Positions 15,439 to 64,000 of a stretch of DNA of 64,000 bases are shown here, piece after piece; within the stretch, counting starts at the first letter, position 1; every line of letters starts with the position of its first letter. Source of the stretch: Desulfobacteraceae bacterium. Lineage in GTDB: Bacteria; Desulfobacterota; Desulfobacteria; Desulfobacterales; UBA5616. Under the pieces are notes generated by a model. It was not told the DNA's origin. It did not search any database and saw nothing but the letters and a program-made list of their open reading frames with translations. Both the position numbers and the translations under genes were made by a program. The stretch spans positions 1-64,000 of the forward strand of contig VMSV01000150.1 of assembly GCA_013791935.1 (NCBI GenBank), given 5' to 3'.

Positions 15439-15514
15439 GACGCCTTAAATAGTCCAATTCTCCCTTAAAGGTCAAGATGAATGCGGCACAGAATTCATTT
15501 ATAAGTGCCAATTA

Positions 15515-16666: not shown

Positions 16667-16685
16667 TCCTGTTTCTCTTTTTGAG

Positions 16686-17525
16686 CTAAAACCCGAAAAT
16701 GAATTCTTTATAAAAATAGGCCACGGGGGCTGCAAACAGCAAGGCATCGATCCGGTCCAGCAATCCGCCGTGTCCGGGCAGAATTTTCCCGGAATCTTTA
16801 ATATTTGCAGCGCGCTTAAACAGGGACTCAAAGAGATCCCCCACCTGTCCCATGGCACCTGCCGTGATGAAAAACAATATGGCCGAAGGCCAGGGAAGCC
16901 TGGGCATGTCAAGACCCCATGGCAAATCAGGAAGATAAAGATTGATGAGGCTTCCCACCAGAATATTGGCCAAAATACCTCCTGCTGCTCCCTCTATGGT
17001 TTTTTTGGGGCTTACCGCAGGCATCAATTTGTGCTTTCCCATATAGGTGCCCACATAATAGGCCCCCACGTCTCCGGCAAAGATGATAAATAACAAATAG
17101 AATACCCATATGGTTCCAAACTCTCCAAGCCGCAGAAAAACTAAAAATGCCAGCATCAAGGGAATATAAACCATGCCCTGAACCTGCTTTGCCATCACCT
17201 CCGTCGACCCCAAGGGTTGGCCTGCCTTAAAAACACAGATCATGGCGGAAGAAAGATAATTAATCGCAAACACCAGAAACATGATATCACTCGTCTTCCG
17301 GCTCGCAGCGAGAATCATAAGACATCCGCACAGAATCCCCAAAAAAGAAATCAGGCTGGTTTTCAGGGTTTCCGGAAAGACAATGCTGAAGTATTCATAA
17401 AGTGAAACAGCGCATACAAAGCAAATCAGCAAAACAAACGGCATTCCCCCCTCGGCGATGAGAAAAAGAACAAGGGGAAAAGCGACGATACTGGTCAGCC
17501 AGCGTTTAAGATGCATGTTTTTCAC
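16686..17525 (-). CDS. cdsA: Phosphatidate cytidylyltransferase
   Basis: Multi-TM; GDVGAYYVGTYMGKHKLMPAVSPKKTIEGAAGG...GQVGDLFESLFKRAANIKDSGKILPGHGGLLDRIDALL. Confidence 0.93.
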   Translation of the reverse strand: MKNMHLKRWLTSIVAFPLVLFLIAEGGMPFVLLICFVCAVSLYEYFSIVFPETLKTSLISFLGILCGCLMILAASRKTSDIMFLVFAINYLSSAMICVFKAGQPLGSTEVMAKQVQGMVYIPLMLAFLVFLRLGEFGTIWVFYLLFIIFAGDVGAYYVGTYMGKHKLMPAVSPKKTIEGAAGGILANILVGSLINLYLPDLPWGLDMPRLPWPSAILFFITAGAMGQVGDLFESLFKRAANIKDSGKILPGHGGLLDRIDALLFAAPVAYFYKEFIFGF

Positions 17526-17581
17526 CGAAAGGACTGAGGTTTGCGGGAATGGGTTTTAATCATTTGAAAGACCATGGCTTC

Positions 17582-18367
17582 TTACTCGGAAGGAATTTTA
17601 CCGAATCGACGTTGACGAAGCTGGTAGTCTTTGATGATCGCATGGAATTCGGCTTTGTCCAGATCAGGCCACAGGGTGTGTGTAAAGTAAATTTCCGAGT
17701 ATGCGATCTGCCATAACAGAAAATTGCTGATGCGCATTTCACCGCTGGTTCTGATAACCAGATCGGGATCAGGCATTCCATGGGTATAAAGATATTTGGA
17801 CAGGAGTTCCGGAGTGATTTCCCCAAGCTCAATTTTGTGACGGACCGCATCTTCTGCAATTTTCGCCGCAGCCATGGCGATTTCGGATCTTCCCCCATAG
17901 CTTAAGGCCAGGGTTAAAACCATCCCGCTGTTTTTGGCAGTGAGCTCCAAGGCATAATCAAGCACTTGGGTTACGTCCTTGGGAAGTCTGTGGGTCTGTC
18001 CTATGGCGTTTAACCGAATGTTATTTTCCAGAAGCTCATTCTGCTCTTCCACAAGGAATCGTTTCAAAAGCTTCATCAGGGCCATCACTTCAGTTTTGGG
18101 CCTTTCCCAGTTTTCCGTGGAAAAAGCATACAACGTCAGAAAAGAGATGCCCATCTCACGGGCCGATCTTACCACGGTCCGGACGGTTTCAGCCCCCCGG
18201 TTATGTCCGTTGATGCGATTGAGTTTCCTTTTCTTGGCCCAACGGCCGTTCCCGTCCATGATAATGCCCACATGCGTGGGAATTTTATCAGGATCCAATC
18301 CATCCGAGATTTTGGATTCATTCTTAAAGTTCAAGGATTTCTTTCTCTTTTTCTTTATACAGGTCAT
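17582..18367 (-). CDS. uppS: Isoprenyl (undecaprenyl) diphosphate synthase; start codon uncertain
   Basis: PTHVGIIMDGNGRWAKKRKLNRINGHNRGAETVR...MPDPDLVIRTSGEMRISNFLLWQIAYSEIYFTHTLWPD. Confidence 0.93.
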   Translation of the reverse strand: MTCIKKKRKKSLNFKNESKISDGLDPDKIPTHVGIIMDGNGRWAKKRKLNRINGHNRGAETVRTVVRSAREMGISFLTLYAFSTENWERPKTEVMALMKLLKRFLVEEQNELLENNIRLNAIGQTHRLPKDVTQVLDYALELTAKNSGMVLTLALSYGGRSEIAMAAAKIAEDAVRHKIELGEITPELLSKYLYTHGMPDPDLVIRTSGEMRISNFLLWQIAYSEIYFTHTLWPDLDKAEFHAIIKDYQLRQRRFGKIPSE

Positions 18368-18881
18368 CGACTTTCTTGATATGCTCGTCGGTTATTTTCT
18401 GAATCTGTTCCTGAGCTTTGAATGCCTGGTCTTCGGCGATATCCCCGTCTTTTTTCAATCCTTTGATCACTTCATTGGAATCCCTGCGAATATTGCGTAT
18501 GCCCACCCGGTATTCCTCGCAGATTTTATTGATGACTTTCACCAATTCTTTTCGTCTCTGCTCCGTCAGCACTGGAATGGAAATTCTGATGATTTTGCCG
18601 TCATTGGACGGATTAAGGCCAAGGTCCGACTTCAGGATAGCCTTTTCAATTTCCTTTAATATGGACAATTCCCAGGGCTTGATGGTGATAAGCCGGCTTT
18701 CCGGAACAGCAAGGGCCGCCACCTGGTTCAGGGGCGTAAGGGTGCCATAGTAATCGACTTTGACATTATCCAGTAAATTAAGAGAGGCTCGGCCGGTTCG
18801 TATTTTGCTTAATTCATGTTTGCAGGCGGTAATGGTTTTATCCATACGATCTGCAGTATCTTCATAGGTGGCCTGTATCAT
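18324..18881 (-). CDS. frr: Ribosome recycling factor
   Basis: ELSKIRTGRASLNLLDNVKVDYYGTLTPLNQVAAL...RKELVKVINKICEEYRVGIRNIRRDSNEVIK. Confidence 0.95.
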   Translation of the reverse strand: MIQATYEDTADRMDKTITACKHELSKIRTGRASLNLLDNVKVDYYGTLTPLNQVAALAVPESRLITIKPWELSILKEIEKAILKSDLGLNPSNDGKIIRISIPVLTEQRRKELVKVINKICEEYRVGIRNIRRDSNEVIKGLKKDGDIAEDQAFKAQEQIQKITDEHIKKVDDLYKEKEKEILEL

Positions 18882-18955
18882 GGTGTTATCCTCTTGATTT
18901 AGCTAATATTAACTTTCAATCAGAGGGGCCTTGAAAAATGGTTAAGGCCCTGGAG

Positions 18956-19672
18956 TTAATTATTGATGCGGGTTCCCAGATCGCCGTCACACACTGCTCT
19001 TTTAACACTTCCCTTTGTGTTCACGTTAAAAATCATCAGAGGCAGGTTATTGTCCATGGCAAGAGAAATGGCGGTCATGTCCATAACGTTGAGTTTTTTT
19101 GACAGAACTTCCATGTAAGTAGCATTTTTAATCAGTTTGGCATCCTTGTTCGTTTTGGGGTCCGAATCGTAAAGGCCGTCTATATGGGTGGCTTTCAGGA
19201 GGATTTCTGCATGGATCTCCTGGGCGCGAAGCACAGCTGCAGTATCGGTTGTAAAATAAGGGCTTCCCATTCCTGCAGCAAAGATGACCACTCGGCCTTT
19301 CTCAAGATGACGGATGGCCTTTCTTCGAATATAGGGTTCTGCCAGTTCATGGGTGGATATGGCGGTTTGAACCCGGGTGGGAATCCCTTTTTTCTCAAGG
19401 GCATCCTGAAGGGCAAGGCTGTTAATCAACGTGGCAAGCATTCCCATATGATCGGCGGCAACCCTGTCCATACCATAGGCTCCTGCGGCAATACCTCTAA
19501 AGATATTGCCGCCACCCACAACACTGGCGACCTGAACCCCAAGATCAAAAATGGATCGGATCTCTTCGGCCACATATTTCAGCATATCCGGACTGATTCC
19601 GAAACCCAGGTCTCCCATAAGGGCTTCACCACTGAGTTTCAGTACAATCCGCTTGTATCGGGGTAAAGTCAA
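18956..19672 (-). CDS. pyrH: UMP kinase
   Basis: [33 protein letters not shown]...[10 protein letters not shown]...[20 protein letters not shown]. Confidence 0.95.
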
Positions 19673-48703: not shown

Positions 48704-49990
48704 ATGATGGACCATGGAATCAGATCATATTTATGCTTGTTGTTCACTTTTTTAATCGTCATCACATCGGTCTTTGCCCAGGAGGAAGAGAAACCCGCCA
48801 CCCGGGACAAGGGGCCCTTGGGGGGATTTCTCAAAATAATAGGGGATGCAGCCCAGGAATCCCTCAAGCAAGGCATCGATGAATTCATCGGCACCTACAA
48901 AGGCCGGATCGGTGAAGTTAAACTACTGGAAAGACGCGGGGATTCCATTGCCCTGGAAGTGAAATATGAAGGCGTCAGGCGCAAGGACGGAGTATATGTC
49001 CAGGGAGAGGTTATGGGCTGGGGAAATCCCATGGCAGGCTTCAAAAGCACCTTAACACCCATTCAAGAAAAAGACGGAGTTGTGCGGCTGACCATTGGCT
49101 GGCAACAACAGGATGATTCCGGATGGTCTGTTTCAACGGAAGAGGCAATTACATCGGACCAGATTCGATTATCCCTGGTACGGGACACCAATCCCGAGCG
49201 CCCCTTCGGCATTCTGGACTATGATTTCCAAAAGACCTGGACCGCAAACCATGATATCGAAACCGTCGAAGATACCGCAGGAGTGGAAACCAGCCCATCG
49301 GGTGGATCCATTGAGTTGGCCGAGGGTGAAACTCCGGCGCAAGCTGGCGCCCCTGCTCCGGGAACTCTAAAACCGGCGGGTGTATTGATAAAACCGGGAG
49401 CGGTATTAGCCCCCAGGGCAACCACAACCATTCAACAATCCACCGCTTTGCCCGGAACAACCGTGAATACCCAGACTTTGCAGATCCCGGCCCGGGTGAT
49501 TTCCGATTATAATTTCTTTACTAATGCTTCCAAAGCCAAATGGCGGAGCGCCGCCGGGGATCTTTCCTTTCCCGGAAAGACCAGCAACAACCAAGGGTTT
49601 GCACTTACCCTGAACACCGGCGTAATCTGTCCCAACAACAATGCCGTCAACCTTCTGCAAACCCACCCCCAGTGGGTAAACGGCGGATGGATTGAAGGAC
49701 GCTTTCCTGCCATGGTTCTGGGCCAGAACGTGAAGTTCAAATCCGTGGGCGCCCTGCTGAAAGGCGCAGACCAATCCGACGGTGTGGTCATGTCCGTGTC
49801 CGTATGGCATGACGGCAAATTATATCCGGTTCTTTCCAAACGTGTGAATACCACCCAATATGTGGACATGGAAGCGGACCTGTCCTCCTGGAACGGTAAA
49901 ACCATCCAGATCGTCATGGCTGTAAAATCAGGCCCAACCAGCACCCGGGACTGGGCGGTTTGGGTGAATCCGAGACTGGTTAAGCCATAG
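48704..49990 (+). CDS. Exported hypothetical protein, first gene of the paralog operon
   Basis: Signal peptide (LCLLFTFLIVITSVFAQEEE); AAGGAG RBS; no recognised domain. Confidence 0.7.
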   Translation: MMDHGIRSYLCLLFTFLIVITSVFAQEEEKPATRDKGPLGGFLKIIGDAAQESLKQGIDEFIGTYKGRIGEVKLLERRGDSIALEVKYEGVRRKDGVYVQGEVMGWGNPMAGFKSTLTPIQEKDGVVRLTIGWQQQDDSGWSVSTEEAITSDQIRLSLVRDTNPERPFGILDYDFQKTWTANHDIETVEDTAGVETSPSGGSIELAEGETPAQAGAPAPGTLKPAGVLIKPGAVLAPRATTTIQQSTALPGTTVNTQTLQIPARVISDYNFFTNASKAKWRSAAGDLSFPGKTSNNQGFALTLNTGVICPNNNAVNLLQTHPQWVNGGWIEGRFPAMVLGQNVKFKSVGALLKGADQSDGVVMSVSVWHDGKLYPVLSKRVNTTQYVDMEADLSSWNGKTIQIVMAVKSGPTSTRDWAVWVNPRLVKP

Positions 49991-50135
49991 GACTCGTTTT
50001 CACTCAAATTGCGTATAGAAACCCGTGTAGGGAACAGGCATGCCTGTTCCCGCCTTTGTGTAAACGTAAAAAATGTTTTTAGAATTCGATCGGGTTAAAA
50101 TCTCACACTACCCAAAGACAACAGGAGTAAAACCC

Positions 50136-51737
50136 ATGCGCACCTGGATTGCCCTATTCATTTTTCTCGGTTTGATGTTACCCGTCCCGGCCGAAGACAA
50201 TTCTTCCTCGGGAGGCAAAACCACAAAAAATGCCAAAATTCTTCTTTCGCCCATAAAGCCCATGAAAACCATGGAGTTCAAGCCGGTTACCGCGGTCCAG
50301 ATCAGAAAACCCCTGGCCATCAAACTGGAAAGACTCAGACCCATCCTCCCCTCCCCCACCCTTCCTAAACCAAAAGGACCTGACCCGAGTGCCATCCTTG
50401 ATTTAAGCGATGTCATCGATGATCCGAGCCTGCTGGAAGACTTGGCCATGGTCTGCGGGTGGGACAGCCACCTGATTCTTCAGGATACGGCCGCGCCCCA
50501 TGTATTTTATTATATCCCCAGAGAGTTTCTTCTGAAACGGGACCCGGACGGGTACCGTTTCAATGTGCAATACAACACCCGGGCAGAACCCGGGCAACCC
50601 TCGGTGATGCTCACCGCGGAATTGGAGGCTCCCCATCGTTCCGGAGATGTGAACCTCCTCAAATCCATTATGCGTCAGGCCCTTGGCCTCAAGGCCACAG
50701 ACCCCCTGGACATCAAGGCCCTTCCTGGGCTGGGCGCAACCGCGGACCTTCAATCCCTGGCCACGGGTCTTGCCCTTACGGCCGATCGAATTCATTTAAC
50801 GGTTCCCGCCTATTTAAAGCAGGTTTTCCGCATGACCCTGTCACTCACCCAGGATGAAACCGAAGAAGTCCTGGCCCAGGTTTCCCGTGATGGTCTGGTG
50901 GGAAGTCTTAACGTAAAGGTCATGGACACGGTGATTCCCATTCCCATCCGCATTCAGTATCAGGAATTTTCAGGCCCCCGGCTCAAGGGATTTGATGAGT
51001 GGTCGGAGGGAAAATCCATTGCGTCCCTTGAAAATATAACGGATTTTCCCTTAAATATCGATTCCATCAATGCCTATCGATTACAAGAAGGCAACCTGGA
51101 AAGGGTCTCCAAAAAGCTAAAACCCATGGACATGGAACCTGGAAAGACCAAGCCCCTTTCCCTTCCCACCTCCGAAAAGCTTCTGGGAGACCACCTCATG
51201 GTGACCTGGATGGGCTTAACCCTGGATGGCAATTGCGAAAACTGCATCAAAAAGATTGATTTGAAGGCAAGAAAAGGCGTGGGGCTTGCTCCCGGAAGTA
51301 AAATCCACCTGGAAGCCATTCCCGCCATTTTTGAAGAGTTCGGTTTATACAAACTCATCGTCCATGTTCAGTCCCCCTATTTTACGGCAAACGGAACCGA
51401 GGTTCAGGAACAGGAAACCACCCTGTCTTCGGATAAGAACCAGAATGAAGATCTCCAGATCTTTGTTCCTTCCAACAAAGGCAACGAGCCACTGCTTTAT
51501 AAATACCGTCTTGAGGTCGTAACAGAAACCGGAGAAACCCGCATGGAACCCGATTGGACCGAAGCCCGGAAGCTGACCCAGTTCTTCGGTTCCAACCAGG
51601 TTTCCGCCCTGTTCCCGGACACCCAAAGCCCGGTAATGACCCCTGACCCTTCTGAATCCCCCGATTCCGAAGGGTCCAAAGATACGACAGAACCAAAGGA
51701 TACGACCACCGCACCCGAAGAAAATCAGGGGGAGTAA
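50136..51737 (+). CDS. Exported hypothetical protein with FYYIP motif (operon gene 2)
   Basis: MRTWIALFIFLGLMLPVPAEDN signal peptide; RBS ACAGGAG; HVFYYIPREFLLKRDPDGYRFNVQYNTR. Confidence 0.72.
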   Translation: MRTWIALFIFLGLMLPVPAEDNSSSGGKTTKNAKILLSPIKPMKTMEFKPVTAVQIRKPLAIKLERLRPILPSPTLPKPKGPDPSAILDLSDVIDDPSLLEDLAMVCGWDSHLILQDTAAPHVFYYIPREFLLKRDPDGYRFNVQYNTRAEPGQPSVMLTAELEAPHRSGDVNLLKSIMRQALGLKATDPLDIKALPGLGATADLQSLATGLALTADRIHLTVPAYLKQVFRMTLSLTQDETEEVLAQVSRDGLVGSLNVKVMDTVIPIPIRIQYQEFSGPRLKGFDEWSEGKSIASLENITDFPLNIDSINAYRLQEGNLERVSKKLKPMDMEPGKTKPLSLPTSEKLLGDHLMVTWMGLTLDGNCENCIKKIDLKARKGVGLAPGSKIHLEAIPAIFEEFGLYKLIVHVQSPYFTANGTEVQEQETTLSSDKNQNEDLQIFVPSNKGNEPLLYKYRLEVVTETGETRMEPDWTEARKLTQFFGSNQVSALFPDTQSPVMTPDPSESPDSEGSKDTTEPKDTTTAPEENQGE

Positions 51738-51741
51738 CCCA

Positions 51742-52767
51742 TTGAAACACACGGTAATTTTCCTGATCATGCTGATCGGAAGCTTTTCCATTTGCCATGC
51801 TGACCCGGATCTGGGCCGTTTTCAGGACATGGAAGGGATTCGGATCTACGGGGACCATAAATCCGCTTCAGACTGGTACCTGACCCCTTCAGGACCGAAA
51901 CTCGGGAAGCGAAGCGACGGGAGCCCGGACTACGGTCTGGTCCTATACCGGTATCTCGGCCGGTCGGGTACCGGCGATTCGGGAAGTTTCCGGGTTCGCG
52001 GTGTACTCACCCTGGGTCTGGACCGGTCCCAAAAACCCGAGCTTTCCGCCAAGATCAAAAAGTCGCTGCGCCTTCAGGGAATTCCAACCCCCCGGCTGAA
52101 ATCCATGCCGGTTTCAAAAAGCCTTGTGACCTTGATTTTTGCGGGCCAGCAGGATTCCAAGGAATATGCCATACGGTGGAAAACCGGTCCCATGGTGGTT
52201 CCCCTGGATGACCAATTCTCCCAGATTCTCTGGGATGCCGTGGAAGCCGGCCAGACCCTGGTAAGCATCTCCCTGGAGGAATCCCTGGCCGGGGTCCGGA
52301 AAAAGGATGAGGAATGGGAGCCTTCCGCCACTTCAGCCAGCTGGGTGGTTCCGGTTGAGATGGACATGAAAAACCATCCGGACCATTTTCAGCGCATGGA
52401 TCTGGGGGGAAGGATGAAGGTCGGGTATACCGGCCTGGATGTATTCTGCTTTGATTTTCTCGAAAACCTTGAAGATAAATTATATGCCAAGATGGTTGAG
52501 GTATCCATTCCCACGACCGGAAGAGACCTGGTGGAAACCATCACCTTTAAGGCGGACGGCGAGTACCGCAGCCGCATGGAGTTTAAGCTGGCCAAAGATC
52601 TGGACCGTCCCTACCGCTACCGTATCTCCAGGATCTGGCAGGATGGCACCAGAGAAACCGGCCCATGGCAGGAAAAAGAAGGGGAAACCCTTCTGGATAT
52701 CACCGCCTATAAAAAAATAGAGGAGCCGGGTGAAGAACCACGGGAATCATCTGCATCAGAACCATGA
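51742..52767 (+). CDS. Exported hypothetical protein (operon gene 3, TTG start)
   Basis: MKHTVIFLIMLIGSFSICHADPD signal peptide; 4 bp after gene 2. Confidence 0.72.
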   Translation: MKHTVIFLIMLIGSFSICHADPDLGRFQDMEGIRIYGDHKSASDWYLTPSGPKLGKRSDGSPDYGLVLYRYLGRSGTGDSGSFRVRGVLTLGLDRSQKPELSAKIKKSLRLQGIPTPRLKSMPVSKSLVTLIFAGQQDSKEYAIRWKTGPMVVPLDDQFSQILWDAVEAGQTLVSISLEESLAGVRKKDEEWEPSATSASWVVPVEMDMKNHPDHFQRMDLGGRMKVGYTGLDVFCFDFLENLEDKLYAKMVEVSIPTTGRDLVETITFKADGEYRSRMEFKLAKDLDRPYRYRISRIWQDGTRETGPWQEKEGETLLDITAYKKIEEPGEEPRESSASEP

Positions 52768-52784
52768 TTTAACAAAGGAGGCGT

Positions 52785-55583
52785 ATGAACTTTTCCATTT
52801 TTCGAAAACCCCTGTTATTCTCGGCCTTGATGGTCTGGATCCTTGCCATGGTCAACCCTTCGTCGGCCCAGGAAATTCTTCTGGACAAAATGGAAAAGGG
52901 CGGGGATCTGGTCTGTTATCCCAGTTTGAAAGATCCCAATCAGTGGTATTATCTTCCGGATCAGCCCAGGTTGGCGGTTGAAAACGGCAAGCCCCAGTTT
53001 TCATTTCTTAAATATGCCAGAACCCAGGCTTCGGGAAAGGCCGGTACGGGCCGTGCCGATGGGGGTGGCATTGTGCATTTTCTGGTGACTTACGGGGCCT
53101 CGGAAACCCGGGTCCGCCAGGCCCAGAAAGCCCTGCAGGAAAGGCATCCCGATGCCACCATCGTGGGGCCCATCGTGTACCGGAAAGGAAGTTTCGCCCT
53201 GATCACCTCCTTCAAGGAAGGGGACAATCTCACCACAAAAACCGTGGCGGTAGGCAAAGCGCCTCTGATGGAAGGACAAAAAGCGGCCGTGTCCATGGCA
53301 CTCACCAGGGAAGGGGCTGAGTTGCTCTGGGAAAGCTTTCAAACTTCCACCCCGGACATTTCCCTGGTTTTTGACATGGAGTTCGCGGGCGTTCGAGAGC
53401 CCTTTGAAGCCACCCTGGAGGCGGACTGGGCCCAGATCAGCAAACATCAACGGGTCAAAGCCGGGTTCAGCTCCCGGTGGTTCGGCGCGGATGTGGACAT
53501 CCTGCTTCAGGAGCTCCGGCAAACCGGCGCGGTGAAGATCACCACCAAAGGGGAAAGCGCCCCCATGGAAAAAATCCTGGACAGCGTCAACAACAAGCTC
53601 CTCCAGGTGATGTTCGACCCTGCCCCCACGGATGACATCAGCCGGGCCGCGGCCGACAACAACAGTTACAACAGCCTTAATCAGGCGGTTCAGATGCTCC
53701 GCAATGCCTCCCAAACCAGCGGAAGCGGCTCCTCTACATCCTCTACGGGAACCCGAAGTGATATAGGAAATCTCCCCGGTTTTTCATGGAATTCCCTTCA
53801 GGCCAGGGCATCGAACCCTTTTTTCTCCAACCTCTTCTCCAATGCTTATGCCGATCCCGCGGAATCCACCGCCCGAACGGAAAGCGGCGGTGAAGGTGCG
53901 GTGGCAACCCCCCAAACCGATCCGGCAGAAGCCCGGTCGAGGGAAGCATTTGCAAGGGGACGGGATTATTATTCCAACAACCGGTTCCAGGAGGCCCATG
54001 ATGCTTTTCGGGAAGGTCTGGACCTCTATTCCACGGTTCCGAATCCCCAGTCCAGAGTACGGGCCGGATTCTTGAATAACATGGGTGTGTCGCTCATGCA
54101 TCTCAACCAGTATGATGCGGCCATCGCCAATTTGAATGAATCTGCGGATTTATATGGCCGTGATACCCAAGACGGAAGGGATGTTCTGGAAAAATTACGT
54201 GAAGCCGAGGAACTGGCTCGTCCTGCTCAGGGTGCGGGTGAAGCAAGCGCCCGGGAAGATACATCCAGGCAAACCACCTCAGACCAGACCCAGGCTCAAA
54301 CAGCCAGTGAAGCATACAATCGGGCCAGACAATTGCACGAAGAAGCCAGAACCGGGGGATTCGAGCCTTCCAGGACCAGAGCGGCCCTGGACGCTTATGA
54401 AACTTACCAGCGGGATCATAGCCCCACGGGCACCCGTGCCGAAGAGATAGCCGGAAATATTCGAAACCTGCAGGAACGGCTTGCCGCTGCCAGTCAAACC
54501 GCCCGGGGGACTTCCCAAGATGGTTCCGCCACGGAAACTTTACCCGGCCTTCTTCCCAATCCCTTTCAAATACCCGACAACGGAAGCACCACCGGTACCA
54601 CAGGGACCGTAACCCCGCCGTCATCGGGGACCACAGGTACTCCATCCACCCCAGCCCAGCCTGTGGGTTCCGGTTCAACACCAGCCTCAACAACCCCACC
54701 GGCTTCCACCACGGCAGCACGCCCGGCCACCCCGGCAACGGGAAGTGCGGCCGGGAGCCGGTCCAACGGAAGCCCCGGTTTTTCCCTGGTGGCGTCCTAT
54801 CAGATGAAAAACATTAAACGGACCGGCAAGCTGGTTTACAACCTCAACCATTTCTCAACCGAAACCCAGGCCTTTGCCATGTCGGAAAATATCGGGGACA
54901 TCTTTCGTAAATACGGAAAGGATTCCAAGATTTTCAGGGCCGTGACCATCGACGACCCGGTGTTCAAGCAACGGGAGATTCTCGTGACCCTGGATGGACA
55001 GGACGCCTCCACCTTCACCAAATATCTGAATTTTGTGACGGTGAAAATGAAAAAACAGCACCAGGCCGGGGATCAGACCACCGGAGAAGTCGTCATCACG
55101 CCGGACACCTTCAATAAGTCGGGCAACAATTTTTCCCTGACCTATGGCTGGAAAGATGATCCCGACCGGAATGCCTGGCTCAATTACGAATACCAGGCCA
55201 TCTGGTCCTTTTTCGGCGGGGTTGAAATCCGAACCCCATGGACAACAAGTGAGAGCCCCATGATCGCCCTGGCGCCGCCCCACCGTTACCGGACGGTCAC
55301 CATTGAAGGGGACGGCAGTGCTTTGACCAAAGCAGAAGTTCGCCACGCGGTGATCAATCTCAATTGCCGGATCGGTGACAAGTACATCACCAGACAGGCC
55401 ACCCTGAAAAACAACAGCCCTGCCCCGTCTCTGGTCTTGGATCTTCCCGAAGATCCGGCCCATCCGGAAACCAAGGTGTTCATCACCTGGGTCCTGGCCA
55501 ACGGCAAGCAGGTCTCTTCCCCGGAAGCCAAACTGGAAGGGGATATCATTTATTGGGACCAGGTTCCCAAAGGAGGCGCATAG
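52785..55583 (+). CDS. Exported paralog-family protein A with internal TPR-like region and Thr/Pro/Ser linker (operon gene 4)
   Basis: NQWYYLPDQPRLAVENGKPQFSFLKYART...KAPLMEGQKAAVSMALTREGAELLWESF...FRAVTIDDPVFKQREILVTLDG. Confidence 0.78.
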   Translation: MNFSIFRKPLLFSALMVWILAMVNPSSAQEILLDKMEKGGDLVCYPSLKDPNQWYYLPDQPRLAVENGKPQFSFLKYARTQASGKAGTGRADGGGIVHFLVTYGASETRVRQAQKALQERHPDATIVGPIVYRKGSFALITSFKEGDNLTTKTVAVGKAPLMEGQKAAVSMALTREGAELLWESFQTSTPDISLVFDMEFAGVREPFEATLEADWAQISKHQRVKAGFSSRWFGADVDILLQELRQTGAVKITTKGESAPMEKILDSVNNKLLQVMFDPAPTDDISRAAADNNSYNSLNQAVQMLRNASQTSGSGSSTSSTGTRSDIGNLPGFSWNSLQARASNPFFSNLFSNAYADPAESTARTESGGEGAVATPQTDPAEARSREAFARGRDYYSNNRFQEAHDAFREGLDLYSTVPNPQSRVRAGFLNNMGVSLMHLNQYDAAIANLNESADLYGRDTQDGRDVLEKLREAEELARPAQGAGEASAREDTSRQTTSDQTQAQTASEAYNRARQLHEEARTGGFEPSRTRAALDAYETYQRDHSPTGTRAEEIAGNIRNLQERLAAASQTARGTSQDGSATETLPGLLPNPFQIPDNGSTTGTTGTVTPPSSGTTGTPSTPAQPVGSGSTPASTTPPASTTAARPATPATGSAAGSRSNGSPGFSLVASYQMKNIKRTGKLVYNLNHFSTETQAFAMSENIGDIFRKYGKDSKIFRAVTIDDPVFKQREILVTLDGQDASTFTKYLNFVTVKMKKQHQAGDQTTGEVVITPDTFNKSGNNFSLTYGWKDDPDRNAWLNYEYQAIWSFFGGVEIRTPWTTSESPMIALAPPHRYRTVTIEGDGSALTKAEVRHAVINLNCRIGDKYITRQATLKNNSPAPSLVLDLPEDPAHPETKVFITWVLANGKQVSSPEAKLEGDIIYWDQVPKGGA

Positions 55584-55584
55584 C

Positions 55585-57351
55585 ATGAAGCACCTTGGAA
55601 AAATCTGTAGGATGGGAATCATCGGCCTGGGGTTTGTTTTTTTCATGCCCTCCGCATGGGGTCTTGTGAATTATGAATCCGGCCAATTTGAACTCAACGG
55701 TGTTTTGCTCCTGCAGGACGCCGATGACCCGAATGTGTATTACTACCTGCCTCCGGCTCCACGGGTTTCCCAAAGAAAGGACGGCGGATTAGAATTATCC
55801 CTGGTAAAATTTGTGGACCCCCGGGGAGACACCAGCGGCGGATTGCTGCACATGCTCGTGACCTTTACCCTGCCCGATGATGAGCTGACTGCCCTTCGGG
55901 AAGCACTTGGAAAGGAGAAGGGCAAAGTCCGCCTGGCCGGTCCGGTTCCCCTCCGCCAGGAGGAGGAAGGCAGTTTCACCATCATTTCAGGCTCCCTGTC
56001 GGACAAGGGGTTCACCCGGAATCTGATCACCAGCGGCCGGGCCCCGGTAACTCCAGGCGCAAAGGCCGCCATCGCCGCCACCCTCACCCCCCAGGGGGCT
56101 ACCCTGTTGTGGGAATCCCTCACCAAGCCCACCTCCGATGTTTCCGTGGCTTTGCGCACCTATTATGAAGCCGTTCTGCCCTCGTTCCAGGCCAAGATCA
56201 GCGCGGATATCAGCACGGTGTATGAGCATTTTTCCCGGGTGAAAAACCGGCAGGAGGATTACACCAAACGCCAGCTTCGGGACATCATGGACGAACTGGT
56301 ACGAACCGGCGTCATTCAGGTGGAAATCTTCGACCGCCTTCCGGAAGATGCGGCCAACAAGGCCATGCAGAGTCTGGTGGATCTGGCCACCACCAAACTG
56401 ACGGAAATCATCTTTGACACCCAGACCGGGTTCACGGCCCTTCCGGAAAAGGAAAAAGCCGTGGAATCGGGGCAGTTGGCCGGTCGCCAGCAGAAAGGGT
56501 GGCTGGCCAAGCTTTTCACAAGCTCCGGGAATCAGAAATATTACACGGATGACCAGTTTGTTCTGAAAAAGCGCACGGACATCAACCGGGCCGCCTTCAC
56601 CATCAACCTGACCCGCAAGGCGGTGGTAAAAGTTCCGGTGGACACTTCAGGCAATATTTCCGGACTGTACCAGGAATTCAAAGAAAACCCGGACATGTTC
56701 CGGGTGGTGAACCTGGCGGATCCGGCGTTTCAGAAACGAGAAGTATTTTTCCGGATCGACGGGGATTTCACAGGGGTTTTCGAGGACATGATGAATTTTG
56801 CCGGGGTGTCGGTGTTGAAGAAGTACGCGGACCATGATGCCGCCACGGGGGAACTCGTGTTCACACGGGAGGATATTCGGGACGGAAAGCTCAGCAAGTC
56901 CTGGCAGTACGCTCGGCTTGGAGAGAAAAACGAAAGCTGGCTGGATTACGGGTATCGCACCACCTGGAGCATTCAGGGGCAGCATCAGATTAAATCTCCG
57001 GAAAAAGAAGGGGAATGGATTCAAAGCAGCGACCCCATCATCACCATTGCACCGCCTTTGAAACGTCTGGACCTGGAAATGGACGGAGATCGTTTCCGTT
57101 TTGAAAACGCGGGCATGCGAAGCGCCATGGTGGAGGCCCGTTACACGATGTTCAACAAGGAAGTCATCAAACGCCTGGGGGTGATGCGGTCCACGGACGC
57201 GGAATCGGTTTCCAAGGTCGTTTTGTTTCATGACCCCGGAAAGCAGGTATCCTACCGGGTGAACTGGTATCCTGCAACCGGTGAGGCCGTGAAAGGAGAT
57301 TGGCAGCCTTTGGAAGAGACCTATGTGGTGTTTACTCCACCCGTCAAATAA
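55585..57351 (+). CDS. Exported paralog-family protein B (operon gene 5)
   Basis: NVYYYLPPAPRVSQRKDGGLELSLVKFV...LITSGRAPVTPGAKAAIAATLTPQGATLLWESL...FRVVNLADPAFQKREVFFRIDG. Confidence 0.78.
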   Translation: MKHLGKICRMGIIGLGFVFFMPSAWGLVNYESGQFELNGVLLLQDADDPNVYYYLPPAPRVSQRKDGGLELSLVKFVDPRGDTSGGLLHMLVTFTLPDDELTALREALGKEKGKVRLAGPVPLRQEEEGSFTIISGSLSDKGFTRNLITSGRAPVTPGAKAAIAATLTPQGATLLWESLTKPTSDVSVALRTYYEAVLPSFQAKISADISTVYEHFSRVKNRQEDYTKRQLRDIMDELVRTGVIQVEIFDRLPEDAANKAMQSLVDLATTKLTEIIFDTQTGFTALPEKEKAVESGQLAGRQQKGWLAKLFTSSGNQKYYTDDQFVLKKRTDINRAAFTINLTRKAVVKVPVDTSGNISGLYQEFKENPDMFRVVNLADPAFQKREVFFRIDGDFTGVFEDMMNFAGVSVLKKYADHDAATGELVFTREDIRDGKLSKSWQYARLGEKNESWLDYGYRTTWSIQGQHQIKSPEKEGEWIQSSDPIITIAPPLKRLDLEMDGDRFRFENAGMRSAMVEARYTMFNKEVIKRLGVMRSTDAESVSKVVLFHDPGKQVSYRVNWYPATGEAVKGDWQPLEETYVVFTPPVK

Positions 57352-57376
57352 TTGAATCAAAAAAGGAGAATGGACG

Positions 57377-59356
57377 ATGATAAAACCCTGGAATAAAATG
57401 GCTTGGGCAATGGCTTTTACGGTCTTTTCCCTTGCTGGAAGCGCCCTGGCCGCACCGGGAAAAGGTGCGGATCAGAAGATCAATTACATCCGTCAATTCA
57501 AACCCCTGGCCATCTCCCCTTCCCTCACGATACCCTCCGGGGATTCCGCAAAGGAAGTGGGCGGCATAGCCTACGGCCGTCATGTGGACGTGAAGCTCGC
57601 CGACGGCAGCACGGTCCGGTGCTTTCCCACAGCCACCACCGACCCGGAAAAACCCGGCAAGAACTATTACTACCTTCCCACCAATCCCCATGTGTCCAAG
57701 TTCCCGGACGGCATGCCCAAATTTTCCATGATCCGCTTCGTATCCGATAAGGCCAAGGAAGCCGGCGGTGCGGAAGGTGCTGTTCTTCACTTTCTGGTGG
57801 AATACGGCCTGGATCAGGCCCAACAGCAGGAGACAGCCAAGTTGCTCCAGAAACAGGTGAAAGACGCCGTGCTCAAGGGCGCTGTTCCCCTGGAAGTGGG
57901 AGCCGAAGGCAACAGCTTCAATGTCATCTCCGCTGTTTTAGGGGACAAAAATTTTGCCCCCACCCTGATCACCAGCGGCAAGGCCCCGGTCATGGAAGGC
58001 CAGCAGGTGGCGGTGGCTGCCCGGCTGGATGCCTACGGCGCAACCCTTCTGGCCAAGGGATTTGAGCAACCTACATCCCAGGTCTCCGTGGCTTTTGATC
58101 TCAAATACGTGGTGAAGCTCCCGGCCTATGATGTGAAAGTCACCATTGATTATGACAAATTCAATTTGGTGGAATCGGAGTACAGCCATACCAGGCAGAA
58201 AACGTCCACCAGCAAACGTACCTGGGATCCCAAATGGTATAACCCTTTTAATATCAGCACCAAAACCGCCACCACCCTAACGGAAAAAGAGCAATCCCAG
58301 GCCCTGGATTTCCTTCAGGAAAACGGGGTGGTAACCTTTGACTATGTCCAGCACGTACCGGATGCCGACAAGGAAATCGTGGAGAGCGGCCTTCATAAAA
58401 TCGTTCTGGAATCCTTCTTTGACATGCAAAAACGGCTGGGAGAACCCACCGATCAGGAGCTCACCTCGGAAGATGAAGGAGACCAAAAGGAAGAAGCCGC
58501 CGCCAGACGAAAGGAAGCGGCCAAACACAACAATTACTCCTACACGGTTTTTCAGCGCAAACAGATTCAGCGGAAATCCAAACAGGTCCTGAATCTGAAA
58601 AAAGTCATGGCCCGGTATGAAACCTATACCATGACCGGCAACATCGGCGCTTGGTATGACCAATACAAGGACAACCCCAAGCTCGTTTCGCAAGTCAACC
58701 TGGATGATCCCTTTTTCCAGAGAAGGGAAATGCGCTTTGTCATCGACAATGAAGCCTATGATATTTTCAAAGACATGGTGAACTACGCCACCATCCAGGT
58801 GCGGGTGGACCGGAAAGACCAGCGGCCCTTCATCGATGAAATGACCATTGACCGGAAATACCTGGAGACCAACGGCCAGACCGCCACCCTCACCTACGCT
58901 CGCATGGGGGACGATGCCCAGACCTATGATTATGCGGTCCAATGGAGCCTGCGGGGCGGAAACCTTTACCCGGCGGAACCCAAATGGGCCAAGGGCGAAC
59001 TCATGGCCGTCACCCTGGCAGCTCCGGTAAGGCCCAGAACTCTGGAAGCCGAAGCGGATCTTGAGGAGCTGGGACAGATTGGCGTGGCCCGGGTCAGCGT
59101 GGAACTGCAATACAACCGGTTCGGGAAACTTTATACGGACACCTCCGGCTTGGCCATCTCCGCAGCCGGGGGGGAAGCCCGGGTGAACAAGGTGATTTAC
59201 CAGGATGCGGGAAACCACAAACTTTCCTACCGGCTCATCTACCATCACAAAAAACTGGGTAAAGTTTCTTCAGATTCCTGGAATCCCGTGGAAGGCGATT
59301 ATATTTACTGCGCGCCCACGGAAATGATCCTTGAAAAGATCAAAAGTGCTTTATAA
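57377..59356 (+). CDS. Exported paralog-family protein C (operon gene 6)
   Basis: NYYYLPTNPHVSKFPDGMPKFSMIRFV...LITSGKAPVMEGQQVAVAARLDAYGATLLAKGF...VSQVNLDDPFFQRREMRFVIDN. Confidence 0.78.
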   Translation: MIKPWNKMAWAMAFTVFSLAGSALAAPGKGADQKINYIRQFKPLAISPSLTIPSGDSAKEVGGIAYGRHVDVKLADGSTVRCFPTATTDPEKPGKNYYYLPTNPHVSKFPDGMPKFSMIRFVSDKAKEAGGAEGAVLHFLVEYGLDQAQQQETAKLLQKQVKDAVLKGAVPLEVGAEGNSFNVISAVLGDKNFAPTLITSGKAPVMEGQQVAVAARLDAYGATLLAKGFEQPTSQVSVAFDLKYVVKLPAYDVKVTIDYDKFNLVESEYSHTRQKTSTSKRTWDPKWYNPFNISTKTATTLTEKEQSQALDFLQENGVVTFDYVQHVPDADKEIVESGLHKIVLESFFDMQKRLGEPTDQELTSEDEGDQKEEAAARRKEAAKHNNYSYTVFQRKQIQRKSKQVLNLKKVMARYETYTMTGNIGAWYDQYKDNPKLVSQVNLDDPFFQRREMRFVIDNEAYDIFKDMVNYATIQVRVDRKDQRPFIDEMTIDRKYLETNGQTATLTYARMGDDAQTYDYAVQWSLRGGNLYPAEPKWAKGELMAVTLAAPVRPRTLEAEADLEELGQIGVARVSVELQYNRFGKLYTDTSGLAISAAGGEARVNKVIYQDAGNHKLSYRLIYHHKKLGKVSSDSWNPVEGDYIYCAPTEMILEKIKSAL

Positions 59357-59437
59357 ATTAATAATGACCTGTTTTTTTTCATGCGACTGTGCTATTTCTA
59401 GCCAATTTCATTTCCATTAAAAAAGGAGGATTCGGTT

Positions 59438-59833
59438 ATGCTGAAACAATTTCGAAATTCCACACTGGCCCTGGGTATTGTGACTTACCTTCTGTTATTT
59501 TGGACTTCTCCGGCTGCAGCGGCCATGATGGATTCGGCCCTGTCCAATGGTCCTGCTTCCAATTCGGCCAGAAATCTCGAAATTAGTAAAATTCAGAGCG
59601 TTCTGGAAAACAAGATCGTCATGGACAAGCTGAGCGCCTACGGGCTTTCCGCTGATGAAATCCGGGGCAAACTTTGCCAGATGACCGACGATCAGATTCA
59701 CATGCTGGCCCAGGCTTCGGATAATGTTCCGGCCGGCGGAGACGCGGTAGGCCTTCTGGTGGGCGTTCTTTTGGTTATTCTGCTGGTCATCGTCATTCTC
59801 AAGCTCTTGAATAAAGAGATCGTCGTTCGGTAA
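59438..59833 (+). CDS. PA2779-like exported protein with C-terminal TM helix
   Basis: Signal peptide; IQSVLENKIVMDKLSAYGLSADEIRGKLCQMTDDQIHMLAQASDNVPAGGDAVGLLVGVLLVILLVIVILKLLNKEIVVR. Confidence 0.8.
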   Translation: MLKQFRNSTLALGIVTYLLLFWTSPAAAAMMDSALSNGPASNSARNLEISKIQSVLENKIVMDKLSAYGLSADEIRGKLCQMTDDQIHMLAQASDNVPAGGDAVGLLVGVLLVILLVIVILKLLNKEIVVR

Positions 59834-59841
59834 CACAACTA

Positions 59842-60336
59842 TTGAAAGCCTTTTTGGCAGCGCTTCTCTGCCTGGCTTTTGCAGCCAGCTCGGGGGCCCG
59901 GGAAATTGAAGGGATTCCTTTCTTCAGACAGGAAAGGCACCAATGCGGTCAGGCCGCCCTTGCCAGTGTATTGGCGTATTATAAAATCCCCGTTGATATG
60001 GAGATCCTTATCAGGGAAACGTATAGCCAAGCCCTGAAGGGAAGCCTCATGGCTGATCTTGAAAATTACGCCAAGGGACTCGGATTCAAAACCAAGTCCG
60101 GCCAGGGAACCCTTCAAATCCTCAAAGAAAGTGTTCTGGTCCGAAAACCGGTGATTGTTCTTCTGGATAATGGGGTTTGGCTGGCTGCCAAACCCCATTA
60201 TATTGTTATTTTCGGGTTCAATGAAAAGGGCTTCATTGCTCATGACGGAAGCGAGCCTTCGATTTTGTTCAAATATAAGGGATTTGAAAAAACCTGGAAA
60301 AAAATGGGCCACCCTTACCTGATCATCCATCCATGA
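59842..60336 (+). CDS. Exported C39-like cysteine peptidase (PA2778-like peptidase domain)
   Basis: Signal peptide; IPFFRQERHQCGQAALASVLAYYKIPVD...KPHYIVIFGFNEKGFIAHDGSEP: Cys/His papain-like C39 layout. Confidence 0.82.
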   Translation: MKAFLAALLCLAFAASSGAREIEGIPFFRQERHQCGQAALASVLAYYKIPVDMEILIRETYSQALKGSLMADLENYAKGLGFKTKSGQGTLQILKESVLVRKPVIVLLDNGVWLAAKPHYIVIFGFNEKGFIAHDGSEPSILFKYKGFEKTWKKMGHPYLIIHP

Positions 60337-60770
60337 GATCTTTTGTCATCATTGCAGCGGTTTTATGCCTTTCGGGATGCTCCCTTCTCGGGGTTCATAT
60401 TCTCCACGACTCCCTGACAGCAGCCCAGCACAGCGACCTGGGATACACCTATGAAAAGCAGAACAAGCTGGAACTGGCGGAAAAGGAGTACCTCAAGGCC
60501 CTGAAAAAAGACAAGGCCCTGGCGGTCCCCTGTTTCAATCTGGGAAATGTGTATTATAAAATGGGAAAGTCGAAACAAGCGGTCAAATATTATCGCCTTG
60601 GCCTGAAAAAAGCACCGGATCAATCGGACATCATGAACAATCTTGCCTTTGTTCTCATGGAACAGGGCAAATTCGTTGAAGCCCGAAAATGGATTGAAAA
60701 AGCCATCGCTATCGCCCCCAAACCCGAATACCTGGACACCCGGAATAAAATCCTGAACCGCTTGGAATAG
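60333..60770 (+). CDS. TPR lipoprotein
   Basis: Lipobox LCLSGC; LGYTYEKQNKLELAEKEYLKALKKDKALAVPCFNLGNVYYKMGKSKQAVKYYRLGLK; 4-nt overlap with peptidase gene. Confidence 0.82.
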   Translation: MRSFVIIAAVLCLSGCSLLGVHILHDSLTAAQHSDLGYTYEKQNKLELAEKEYLKALKKDKALAVPCFNLGNVYYKMGKSKQAVKYYRLGLKKAPDQSDIMNNLAFVLMEQGKFVEARKWIEKAIAIAPKPEYLDTRNKILNRLE

Positions 60771-61507: not shown

Positions 61508-62520
61508 GTTGATTCTCCTTTGACCCTGACCTCAGGGTTGATGGCCCCCCCTCAAGTGAAGCCCGCTCCAGCGGTGCAGGTATAGCAATGGTCACCCACG
61601 GCGATGGGGAGCCCTTCCTCCGGCGGCCCGGGCATTTCGGAGACGTGCGTCCTTTGTGCGCCCAGGTGGAGCCCCCTGGACAGATTGAAGTCGCAGTCAT
61701 GAAGAACCCCATCCCAAGAAACGGAAACCAGGGATCTGCACATGAGACCTTCAACCGTGCAGGAATTAAACCCCGATGATAGTCTTTCGAGGTAGGCTTC
61801 CAGGTTGCCCTTTTCGTCAAGCCAGTTTCGAAAACGCCCCAAAGGCGCATTGGCAAAAGCATAGAGGTTATTAAAAACAATACCCCACTTTTTCAGAAGC
61901 ACCTCACGAAATCTCTTTTCCAGCTGGTCCTGGGAGCCGGGCAGAAAAGCCCCGGCCGGATTGGAAACCAAATCCAGTGTCAACCGTGTTTCAGGATTCC
62001 CATACCCCAGGGCATTGAGCTTCAAAAGGGTATCGACACTCTTTCTGAAAATACCATTTCCTCTTTGGGCATCTGCCTGGGCTTCATTCAAAGAGGGGAA
62101 AGAGGCCACAATGCCCACGCTCTTTTCTTTCAGCAGCCTGATTAAGTCATGCCTTTTCCCATCGCTTAAGACACTCAAATTCGAGCGGAACGTTATCCTT
62201 GGGGCTTGTGGAAAAAGTCCTTCGATGAGCTTGACGATATTCGGGTTCAGCTCCGGGGCCCCGCCTGTGATATCGATGGCTTCGAACCGGCTTCGATCTG
62301 CGTAGGCGATGATATCATCCATCGTCTCCGAGTCCATATTCTCTTTTCGGTCAGGCCCTGCGCTTAAATGACAATGGCGACACCTCTGATTACAGAGAAG
62401 CCCCACATTGACTTGCAGGGCGGTTGTCTTCTTCCGGGAAAGAACAAGGCCATGGTTGGCCAGGGTCTGGCGGAACGTTTCCGGTGGCCTTATTTGCTCC
62501 CAAGGATAAGCAGCATTCAT
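61504..62520 (-). CDS. arsS: Arsenosugar biosynthesis radical SAM selenoprotein ArsS; UGA at 61552-61554 predicted to encode Sec
   Basis: CNQRCRHCHLSAGP radical SAM CX3CX2C; C-terminus DHCYTCTAGAGFT-TGA-GGAINPEVRVKGEST-TGA. Track ORF stops at the internal TGA. Start MNAAYPWEQ with AGAGGTGA RBS. Confidence 0.82.
61523..61538 (-). promoter_or_regulatory. Candidate bacterial SECIS hairpin downstream of the arsS UGA
   Basis: ACCCTG-AGGT-CAGGGT (6-7 bp stem, loop AGGT about 20 nt after UGA). Confidence 0.68.
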
Positions 62521-62536
62521 CTTCTGGATCACCTCT

Positions 62537-62869
62537 TTACATGGAAAGCTTTTGAGCGATATTGCGCATTTGCACCCCGTGAACCAGGGAAGCTCCCCCT
62601 CGAATGGCCGTTGCCACATGAATGGCCTCGGTCATCTCTTCCAGGTTGGAGCCTTTCTCCAGGCAGGCCCGGGTATAGGCGTCAATGCAGTAAGGGCATT
62701 GAACGGCATGGGCGACGGAAAGCGCGATCAGGGTTTTCTCCCGCTCGGTGAGCGCTCCTTCAGCAAATACCGCGTTATAGTAGTCAAAGAACTTTTGTGC
62801 CAGGTCAGGTGCCTGTTGCCCGATTTCTGAAAACTTGGGTAGGTCTTCCGGCTTGTAATAGGTTTCCAT
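62537..62869 (-). CDS. AhpD/carboxymuconolactone decarboxylase-like protein of arsenosugar clusters
   Basis: ALTEREKTLIALSVAHAVQCPYCIDAYTRACLEKG...HVATAIRGGASLVHGVQM; start at METYYKPEDL, track ORF extends to 62962. Confidence 0.85.
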   Translation of the reverse strand: METYYKPEDLPKFSEIGQQAPDLAQKFFDYYNAVFAEGALTEREKTLIALSVAHAVQCPYCIDAYTRACLEKGSNLEEMTEAIHVATAIRGGASLVHGVQMRNIAQKLSM

Positions 62870-62946
62870 CATCAATCTCTTTGAACTCCTTTCTTGAACA
62901 GGTTTTTTTGTTTTAAAAGCTTTAGAAGAAAGCCGGTCTTCTTCTT

Positions 62947-64000
62947 TCATTCTTCTCCGCACGCCCTCCCTTTGAGGTGAAAGAAAAACTTGAGCCCTTT
63001 CCTGATTTTATCTGAAAAAATCTTCGGGGAAAAATAGGTTCCCGCCACACGCTTGTTGATCTCTCCCAGGGTGGGATACGGGTGGACGGCGGAAGCCAGG
63101 GTGGACAGCTTCACTTTGCCGTTGAGCACAGCCACCCACTCATTGATCAGTTCCCCGGCGTGGGGTCCCAGGATCTGAATGCCCACGGGTTTTTCATCAT
63201 CATTCAGAATCATTTTGATCTTGCCTGCCGTGTTTCCTTCGGCCAGGCTTCGGTCGTTGTCCCTGAAAGCTTCCGTAACCACCGAGTAGTGTATCCCGGC
63301 TTCCTTGGCGGCTTTTTCATTCATCCCGATACTGGCCAGTTCAGGGTCGGTATAGGTGCACCACGGCAAAAAAGTATAGTCGGCCTTTCGGGGAAGATGA
63401 AAGATGGCGTTGCTCACCACAATGCCCCCTTCATATCCTGCGGCATGGGTGAACTGAAAAGCCCCGGTGATATCCCCGGCCGCATAAATATGCTTCCGGG
63501 TGGTTCGCATTCGGGCATCCACTCGAATGCCTTTCCGATTAAACTCAACGCCGATGCCGTCCAGGTTCAGACCGTTCACATTGGGCGCACGACCCATGGC
63601 CACCAGAATCTGTTCCGCAAAAAGGGAGGAGATTTTGCCCTCCTTGGTCTGGATGCGTACTTCTTTCCCTCGGCCGGAATCCCTCACCTCAAGAACCGAA
63701 CTGTTGAGGTGAAACACAACCCCCTCGGATTCAAGTACTTCCATGATGCCATCGGCCATGTCCTTGTCTTCTTTGGTGAGAATCTGATTGCTTCTTTGAA
63801 CCACGGATACCTTTGTGCCCAGTCGGGAGAAAGCCTGGGCCATTTCAATGGCAATGGGTCCGGCGCCCAGAATCACCATGGATTCGGGAAGAGCATCCAG
63901 GGAAAAAATCTCCTTGTTGGTGAGATAGGGGGTTTTGTCCAACCCTGGAATGGAGGGCCTTTCGGGGGATGAGCCTCCGGCGATAACCCAGGTCTTTGCA
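62947..64000 (-). CDS. FAD-dependent pyridine nucleotide-disulfide oxidoreductase (mercuric reductase-like), 5' end outside window
   Basis: AKTWVIAGGSSPERPSIPGLDKTPYLTNKEIFSLDALPESMVILGAGPIAIEMAQAFSRLG...AAGDITGAFQFTHAAGYEG; frame stays open to the right edge. Confidence 0.88.
   Translation of the reverse strand, partial: AKTWVIAGGSSPERPSIPGLDKTPYLTNKEIFSLDALPESMVILGAGPIAIEMAQAFSRLGTKVSVVQRSNQILTKEDKDMADGIMEVLESEGVVFHLNSSVLEVRDSGRGKEVRIQTKEGKISSLFAEQILVAMGRAPNVNGLNLDGIGVEFNRKGIRVDARMRTTRKHIYAAGDITGAFQFTHAAGYEGGIVVSNAIFHLPRKADYTFLPWCTYTDPELASIGMNEKAAKEAGIHYSVVTEAFRDNDRSLAEGNTAGKIKMILNDDEKPVGIQILGPHAGELINEWVAVLNGKVKLSTLASAVHPYPTLGEINKRVAGTYFSPKIFSDKIRKGLKFFFHLKGRACGEE

What the first reader, a model, noticed from the sequence alone, without database searches (positions are those of the whole stretch)
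48704..60770. Nine-gene run of exported proteins with a paralog family, PA2779-like protein, C39-like peptidase and TPR lipoprotein: candidate undescribed envelope system
Nine consecutive plus-strand genes with short gaps (2-145 bp) all start with a signal peptide or lipobox. Three large proteins (52785, 55585, 57377) are clear paralogs sharing YYYLPxxPxvs..GxpxfSxxkF, litSGkAPvmxGqxaAvaaxLtxxGAxLLweSf and FrxVnldDPxFqxREixxxiDg. Genes at 50136 and 51742 share looser features (FYYIP near the N-terminus, beta-rich). The last three genes resemble the P. aeruginosa PA2779/PA2778 pair, with peptidase and TPR as separate genes overlapping by 4 nt. No known secretion ATPase, S-layer or pilus machinery is nearby. 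I recognise no characterised function; a peptidase-processed, surface-deposited protein complex is a hypothesis.
Basis: partly seen in the sequence, partly recalled or inferred. Interest (0 to 1): 0.75.

Follow-up and report, generated by a model that had tools for sequence, protein, structure and literature searches.

The report
Undescribed six-gene exported protein cluster
Six neighbouring genes encode large exported proteins from families absent from the main public family and structure databases, and they recur in the same order in nine genomes of this bacterial phylum; the three genes after them form a separate, common peptidase unit that happens to lie next door.

Summary
The nine-gene run is real, but it is two independent units. 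Genes 1-6 (48704-59356) are a collinear operon found, complete or nearly so, in nine genomes of this phylum (35-78% identity to the window), with different flanks wherever flanks could be read. Genes 7-9 (59438-60770) are a PA2779/PA2778-type module (DUF6627 protein, C39 peptidase, TPR lipoprotein). DUF6627 occurs in 95 of 395 phylum genomes but in only 2 of the 9 with the six-gene operon, and adjacent only here.

Genes 3-6 are four strict orthologue groups of one protein superfamily ("A"); gene 2 is a second family ("B"). Neither matches Pfam, NCBIfam, PHROGs or PADLOC, and no significant PDB relative was found. Non-exported A clusters exist in Pararhizobium, Paracoccus and two other genomes, three of the four with B. 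Two of the four sit directly behind STAND-NTPase conflict genes with TIR or EAD1-trypsin.

Best mechanism, inferred: a Sec-exported hetero-oligomeric extracytoplasmic complex of four non-interchangeable A subunits plus B, with gene 1 (weak NPCBM-like C-terminus) as a possible glycan-binding part. Function remains open.

The parts
48704..49990 (+). g1: exported protein, 428 aa; C-terminal part weakly like an NPCBM carbohydrate-binding domain; first gene of the six-gene operon
   Evidence: Orthologues in seven other genomes at the same place. NPCBM below cut-off in 3 of 8 members, best E 0.0069. Found only in the exported type.
50136..51737 (+). g2: exported family B protein, 533 aa, with an invariant CxxC pair
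   Evidence: Orthologues at 38-65% identity. hhalign 96%, E 3.8e-9 over 342 columns to the C-terminal halves of L013 d6 and Pararhizobium r1. C367/C370 invariant. No Pfam or significant PDB match.
51742..52767 (+). g3: exported family A protein, shortest and most diverged paralogue
   Evidence: hhalign 95% to g4, 89% to g6, 87% to g5; own orthologue clade 100/100.
52785..55583 (+). g4: exported family A protein with a large variable insert carrying TPR repeats and low-complexity stretches
   Evidence: TPR_2 E 8e-8 at 388-453. An independent Pararhizobium query finds it at E 1.4e-19. Clade 96/94.
55585..57351 (+). g5: exported family A protein, most conserved member (60-78% across genomes, apart from the transposase-interrupted G637 copy)
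   Evidence: AlphaFold model pLDDT 66, pTM 0.51: N-terminal alpha/beta domain plus C-terminal Ig-like region.
57377..59356 (+). g6: exported family A protein, last gene of the six-gene operon
   Evidence: Orthologues at 54-77%; clade 99/100.
59438..59833 (+). g7 (separate unit): PA2779-family protein; signal peptide, [AV]-G-[GA] motif, C-terminal TM helix
   Evidence: NF033919 E 4.8e-25; DUF6627 E 4.4e-11. Motif in related loci.
59842..60336 (+). g8 (separate unit): exported C39 cysteine peptidase, N-terminal half of the PA2778 type
   Evidence: Peptidase_C39 E 6.9e-15; NF033920 positions 1-144 E 9.7e-24. QCGQ and KPHY motifs present.
60333..60770 (+). g9 (separate unit): TPR lipoprotein, C-terminal half of the PA2778 type as its own gene
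   Evidence: TPR E 1.6e-21; NF033920 positions 164-255 E 1.5e-13. Split and fused forms both exist in relatives.

Best explanation
The run holds two unrelated neighbours. Shown: genes 1-6 form a conserved collinear operon of exported proteins with four paralogous A subunits, one B subunit and a g1 protein; genes 7-9 are an independent PA2779/PA2778-type peptidase module. Inferred: the six proteins cross the inner membrane by the Sec route and assemble into one hetero-oligomeric complex in the periplasm or on the cell surface. The four A subunits take fixed, different positions, joined through their shared N-terminal domain, with Ig-like domains outward. B caps or links the assembly, and g1 binds glycan or cell wall through its NPCBM-like end. 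Inferred separately for genes 7-9: the C39 peptidase, helped by the TPR lipoprotein, cuts the PA2779 protein at its conserved Gly-Gly/Gly-Ala site just before its C-terminal membrane helix.
For: Same six genes, order and strand in G162/L011, L009, G557, G277, G273 and G294. G637 keeps the order but g3 is shortened and g5 interrupted, and the L010 contig holds g4-g6 only. Flanks differ where readable. Every A paralogue is a clean orthologue group: 34 queries, no cross-hit, and a tree with four clades. That pattern fits non-interchangeable subunits rather than redundant copies. Signal sequences recur in the orthologues. A and B co-occur again in clusters in other bacteria. Separation of genes 7-9. 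GG in 27 of 33 PA2779 tails and AG[AG] in most of the rest; C39 next door in 28 of 30 loci.
Against: No physical interaction, localisation or expression data. The structure models are of low to middling confidence and match only generic Ig/FN3 chains, so the complex is inferred from gene organisation alone. The operon is rare (5 exported-type genomes in a sample of 395) and is broken by a transposase in G637, so it is dispensable. No outer-membrane secretion or anchoring gene travels with it.
Confidence: 0.5

Rival explanations
1. All nine genes are one envelope system in which the C39 peptidase and TPR lipoprotein process or deposit the large paralogues.
For: Adjacency on one strand in this genome, with all nine products exported. 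The gap between g6 and g7 is only 81 bp and holds no hairpin terminator in the scan, so read-through is possible.
Against: DUF6627 is absent from 7 of 9 genomes with the operon. DUF6627 occurs without the operon in 94 other genomes of the phylum sample, and the three-gene module lies on another contig in G421. G+C differs: g1-g6 54.2%, g7-g9 48-50%, rest of window 47.5%.
Confidence: 0.04
2. The operon is an exported offshoot of a bacterial conflict or self/non-self system: the A/B assembly acts on other cells or on invaders, as its non-exported relatives may do behind STAND NTPases and TIR or EAD1-trypsin proteins.
For: In G446 a TIR protein and an nSTAND1 NTPase lie directly before B and four A-type genes. 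In Paracoccus pNSM5a an EAD1-trypsin, an EAD1-annotated protein and an ATP-binding protein come directly before five A genes, with PLD, tyrosinase and trypsin genes among or after them. An HBL/NHE-like protein is near the Azospirillum relative. EADs are described as parts of conflict systems (PMC7159879).
Against: No STAND, TIR, EAD or toxin gene lies near any exported cluster seen. Pararhizobium and G012 clusters show no recognised conflict gene. No immunity-type partner was found.
Confidence: 0.2
3. The six proteins form a structural surface layer, fibre or matrix that binds substrate or neighbouring cells, with no catalytic or conflict role.
For: Large Ig-like beta-rich exported proteins, no enzyme domain, NPCBM-like end in g1. 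A variable low-complexity and TPR insert in g4.
Against: No anchor, sorting signal, outer-membrane porin or usher in the operon; no match to S-layer, pilus or adhesin families.
Confidence: 0.3

Closest known systems
PA2779/PA2778 pair (NCBIfam NF033919, NF033920; Pfam DUF6627), for genes 7-9
   Same: Same three parts in the same order; short exported protein with C-terminal TM, C39 peptidase, TPR
   Different: C39 and TPR are two genes overlapping by 4 nt rather than one fused gene. This split form is also common in relatives, so it is an ordinary variant.
Non-exported A/B clusters in Pararhizobium qamdonense p2, Paracoccus sp. SMMA_5 pNSM5a, G012 and G446
   Same: Family A (several paralogues per cluster) in all, with family B in Pararhizobium, G012 and G446; gene 4 matched directly at E 1.4e-19 by the Pararhizobium protein
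   Different: No signal peptides, more and longer A proteins, extra genes (proteases, PLD, tyrosinase, STAND/TIR/EAD1), no g1
FapD, C39 peptidase of the Pseudomonas functional amyloid system
   Same: Periplasmic C39-type peptidase; weak match of g8 (E 0.0014)
   Different: No amyloid subunit, FapF-type channel or other fap gene here; far below the model's cut-off
NPCBM/NEW2 carbohydrate-binding domain (PF08305)
   Same: Weak similarity of the g1 C-terminus in 3 of 8 orthologues
   Different: Below the family cut-off in the window protein (13.4 against 23.9 bits)

Membership tests
PA2779/PA2778 peptidase module (genes 7-9) | DUF6627/PA2779-family protein | tested here: met
   NF033919 E 4.8e-25, 88 bits over a cut-off of 40
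PA2779/PA2778 peptidase module (genes 7-9) | Adjacent C39 peptidase with catalytic Cys and His | tested here: met
   Peptidase_C39 55.5 bits over a cut-off of 22; QCGQ and KPHY present
PA2779/PA2778 peptidase module (genes 7-9) | C39 and TPR in one PA2778 protein over the NF033920 cut-off | tested here: not met
   Split into two genes, 84 and 51 bits against a cut-off of 150; the split form recurs in relatives
PA2779/PA2778-C39-TPR system extended to genes 1-6 | Conserved co-occurrence of the two gene sets | tested here: not met
   DUF6627 in 2 of 9 operon genomes, adjacent in 1
STAND/TIR/EAD1 conflict systems | STAND NTPase, TIR or EAD gene in the cluster | tested here: not met
   None recognised next to the window operon or in the flanks read of its exported orthologues; present beside two non-exported relatives
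Any Pfam, NCBIfam, PHROG or PADLOC family (genes 1-6) | Match at the curated cut-off | tested here: not met
   Only TPR in the g4 insert passes
Fap functional amyloid system | FapF-type channel and amyloid subunit beside the C39 gene | tested here: not met
   None in the window's gene run
Alpha-2-macroglobulin/complement-like proteins | Sequence or whole-fold match of the A family | tested here: inconclusive
   Foldseek lists complement chains but with TM about 0.1 and rmsd mostly around 20-35 A, a generic Ig-chain signal

The most novel reading that the evidence does not exclude
The A/B proteins are a previously unnamed class of multi-subunit effector assembly shared by cytosolic STAND/TIR-linked bacterial conflict systems and, in an exported six-gene form, by Desulfobacterota-like bacteria, where it acts outside the cell on competitors or invaders.
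Probability: 0.13. Interest if true: 0.85.

Novelty: categorically new. Interest (0 to 1): 0.58.

Why it matters
Two protein families that recur in fixed multi-gene sets in two phyla have no entry in the family libraries searched and no recognised solved relative. Splitting the nine-gene run makes both halves testable: the six-gene operon as one complex, and the PA2779 protein as a candidate substrate of its own C39 peptidase at a conserved Gly-Gly/Gly-Ala site. The link of the non-exported relatives to STAND/TIR/EAD1 genes gives a first functional lead.

Tried and rejected
Nine genes as one system: rejected by co-occurrence. Phage or virus origin: no hit in phage records, IMG/VR pattern scans, or PHROGs. 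Complement/alpha-2-macroglobulin fold: the Foldseek hits are generic Ig chains with TM about 0.1. The N-terminal domain model gave no hit below E 0.04 and its confidence is low. PDB profile searches for g1, g2 and the A family: nothing, or one chance-level hit. Literature: no paper holds DUF6627, none holds both PA2778 and C39, and in the one relevant paper read, PA2779 is only an uncharacterised neighbour of bswR.

Full report
Observation. The nine ORFs are present as described. Domain searches give no family for genes 1, 2, 3, 5 and 6, only TPR in gene 4, and DUF6627/PA2779, Peptidase_C39 and TPR for genes 7, 8 and 9. Gene 8 matches positions 1-144 and gene 9 positions 164-255 of the PA2778 model, so together they are a split PA2778. 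Genes 4-6 are clear paralogues, and gene 3 is a diverged fourth member.

Two units. A search for gene 5 relatives and their neighbourhoods gave the same six genes in the same order in other genomes. G637 keeps the order but has a shortened g3 and a g5 interrupted by a DDE transposase, and the L010 contig carries g4-g6 only. With the window that is nine genomes. Identities to the window run from 35% (g1) to 78% (g5) and gene gaps are short throughout. The flanks, where readable, are unrelated from genome to genome, apart from the two near-identical loci L009 and L011 and a small lipoprotein gene after g6 shared by L009, L011 and L100. DUF6627 was then sought in all of these genomes: it is present in G000 and in the genome of L010 (G421/G433) and absent from the other seven. 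In G421 it lies on another contig as PA2779-C39-TPR. Across the phylum DUF6627 occurs in 95 of 395 genomes, while the A family occurs in 6 of the same-sized sample; only the window's genome is in both lists. In 28 of 30 DUF6627 loci read, a C39 gene is next to it, either split from TPR as here or as one longer ORF. The three-gene unit is thus an ordinary, common module that adjoins the six-gene operon in this genome only.

The six-gene operon. A tree of 34 A proteins resolves four orthologue clades matching positions 3, 4, 5 and 6, and no query finds a non-orthologue ahead of its own group. Four ancient, non-exchanging paralogues kept together in fixed order are best read as different subunits of one assembly; this is inference. 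Within the g5 and g6 clades the window groups with G277, which is of another order, rather than with relatives of its own order (93/86 and 100/97), and g1-g6 have 54.2% G+C against 47.5% for the rest of the window. Both fit horizontal gain. The operon is rare and decaying in G637, so it is dispensable.

Wider superfamily. A single Pararhizobium plasmid protein, used as an independent query, finds the same six genomes in the phylum and matches gene 4 at E 1.4e-19. Profile comparison links genes 3-6 with several proteins each in Pararhizobium p2 (L032), G012 (L012/L013) and Paracoccus pNSM5a (L035). Gene 2 matches the C-terminal halves of L032 r1 and L013 d6 (96%, E 3.8e-9), and a gene 2-like protein stands in the G446 cluster. 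hhalign E-values here are for single comparisons with few sequences. These relatives lack signal peptides by eye. Two of the clusters stand directly behind conflict genes: TIR and nSTAND1 in G446, and EAD1-trypsin, an EAD1-annotated protein and an ATP-binding protein in Paracoccus. EADs were described as parts of conflict systems in PMC7159879; that paper's text has no tyrosinase, immunoglobulin or phospholipase D. No conflict gene was recognised by the exported clusters.

Structure. The full g5 model has pLDDT 66 and pTM 0.51: an N-terminal alpha/beta domain, a helical and disordered middle, and a C-terminal beta region. Foldseek gives only generic Ig/FN3 chains with TM about 0.1. The N-terminal domain alone was modelled no better and has no significant match. 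A new fold is neither shown nor excluded.

Genes 7-9. The PA2779 tails share an [AV]-G-[GA] motif right before a C-terminal membrane helix (GG in 27 of 33). C39 peptidases of known type cut after double-glycine motifs (general knowledge), so the neighbour peptidase is the natural candidate to cut there. This is inferred, not shown.

Verdict.

Noticed in passing
window 60167-60201 (inside g8): Perfect 15-bp inverted repeat with a 5-base loop inside the C39 coding sequence (ATAATGGGGTTTGGC-TGGCT-GCCAAACCCCATTAT) followed by a T-rich stretch; its 10-bp core occurs once in the genome.
   Followed up: partly
L101 (G637) 14383-19479: The orthologous operon carries a DDE transposase gene between a truncated g5 and g6, and g3 is shortened: the operon is decaying in this genome.
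   Followed up: partly
L035 6414-32266 (Paracoccus sp. SMMA_5 pNSM5a): Large non-exported A-family cluster with EAD1-trypsin, EAD1 protein, ATP-binding protein, PLD, TAT-type tyrosinase and a second trypsin; undescribed as a system as far as found here.
   Followed up: partly
L102 1627-20000 (G446): TIR protein, nSTAND1-pentapeptide NTPase, then B-family, four A-family proteins and further unknown proteins on one strand.
   Followed up: partly
L079 12481-20285 (Azospirillum lipoferum 4B AZO_p5): A-family relative two genes after an HBL/NHE-like (PF05791) protein, among insertion sequences.
   Followed up: no
PA2779 loci L038-L067 and window 59438-59833: Conserved [AV]-G-[GA] motif directly before the C-terminal TM helix of PA2779-family proteins: a candidate C39 cleavage site.
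   Followed up: partly
L009 14497-14928, L011 14512-14928, L100 17927-18364: Small lipoprotein gene of about 140 aa directly after g6 in one clade of the operon.
   Followed up: no
window 61552-62962 (- strand): Radical SAM protein with DUF3641 (ArsS-like) next to a short AhpD-like gene, downstream of the run.
   Followed up: no
window 50030-50051: GC-rich hairpin with a 9-bp stem between g1 and g2, without a strong T tail.
   Followed up: no
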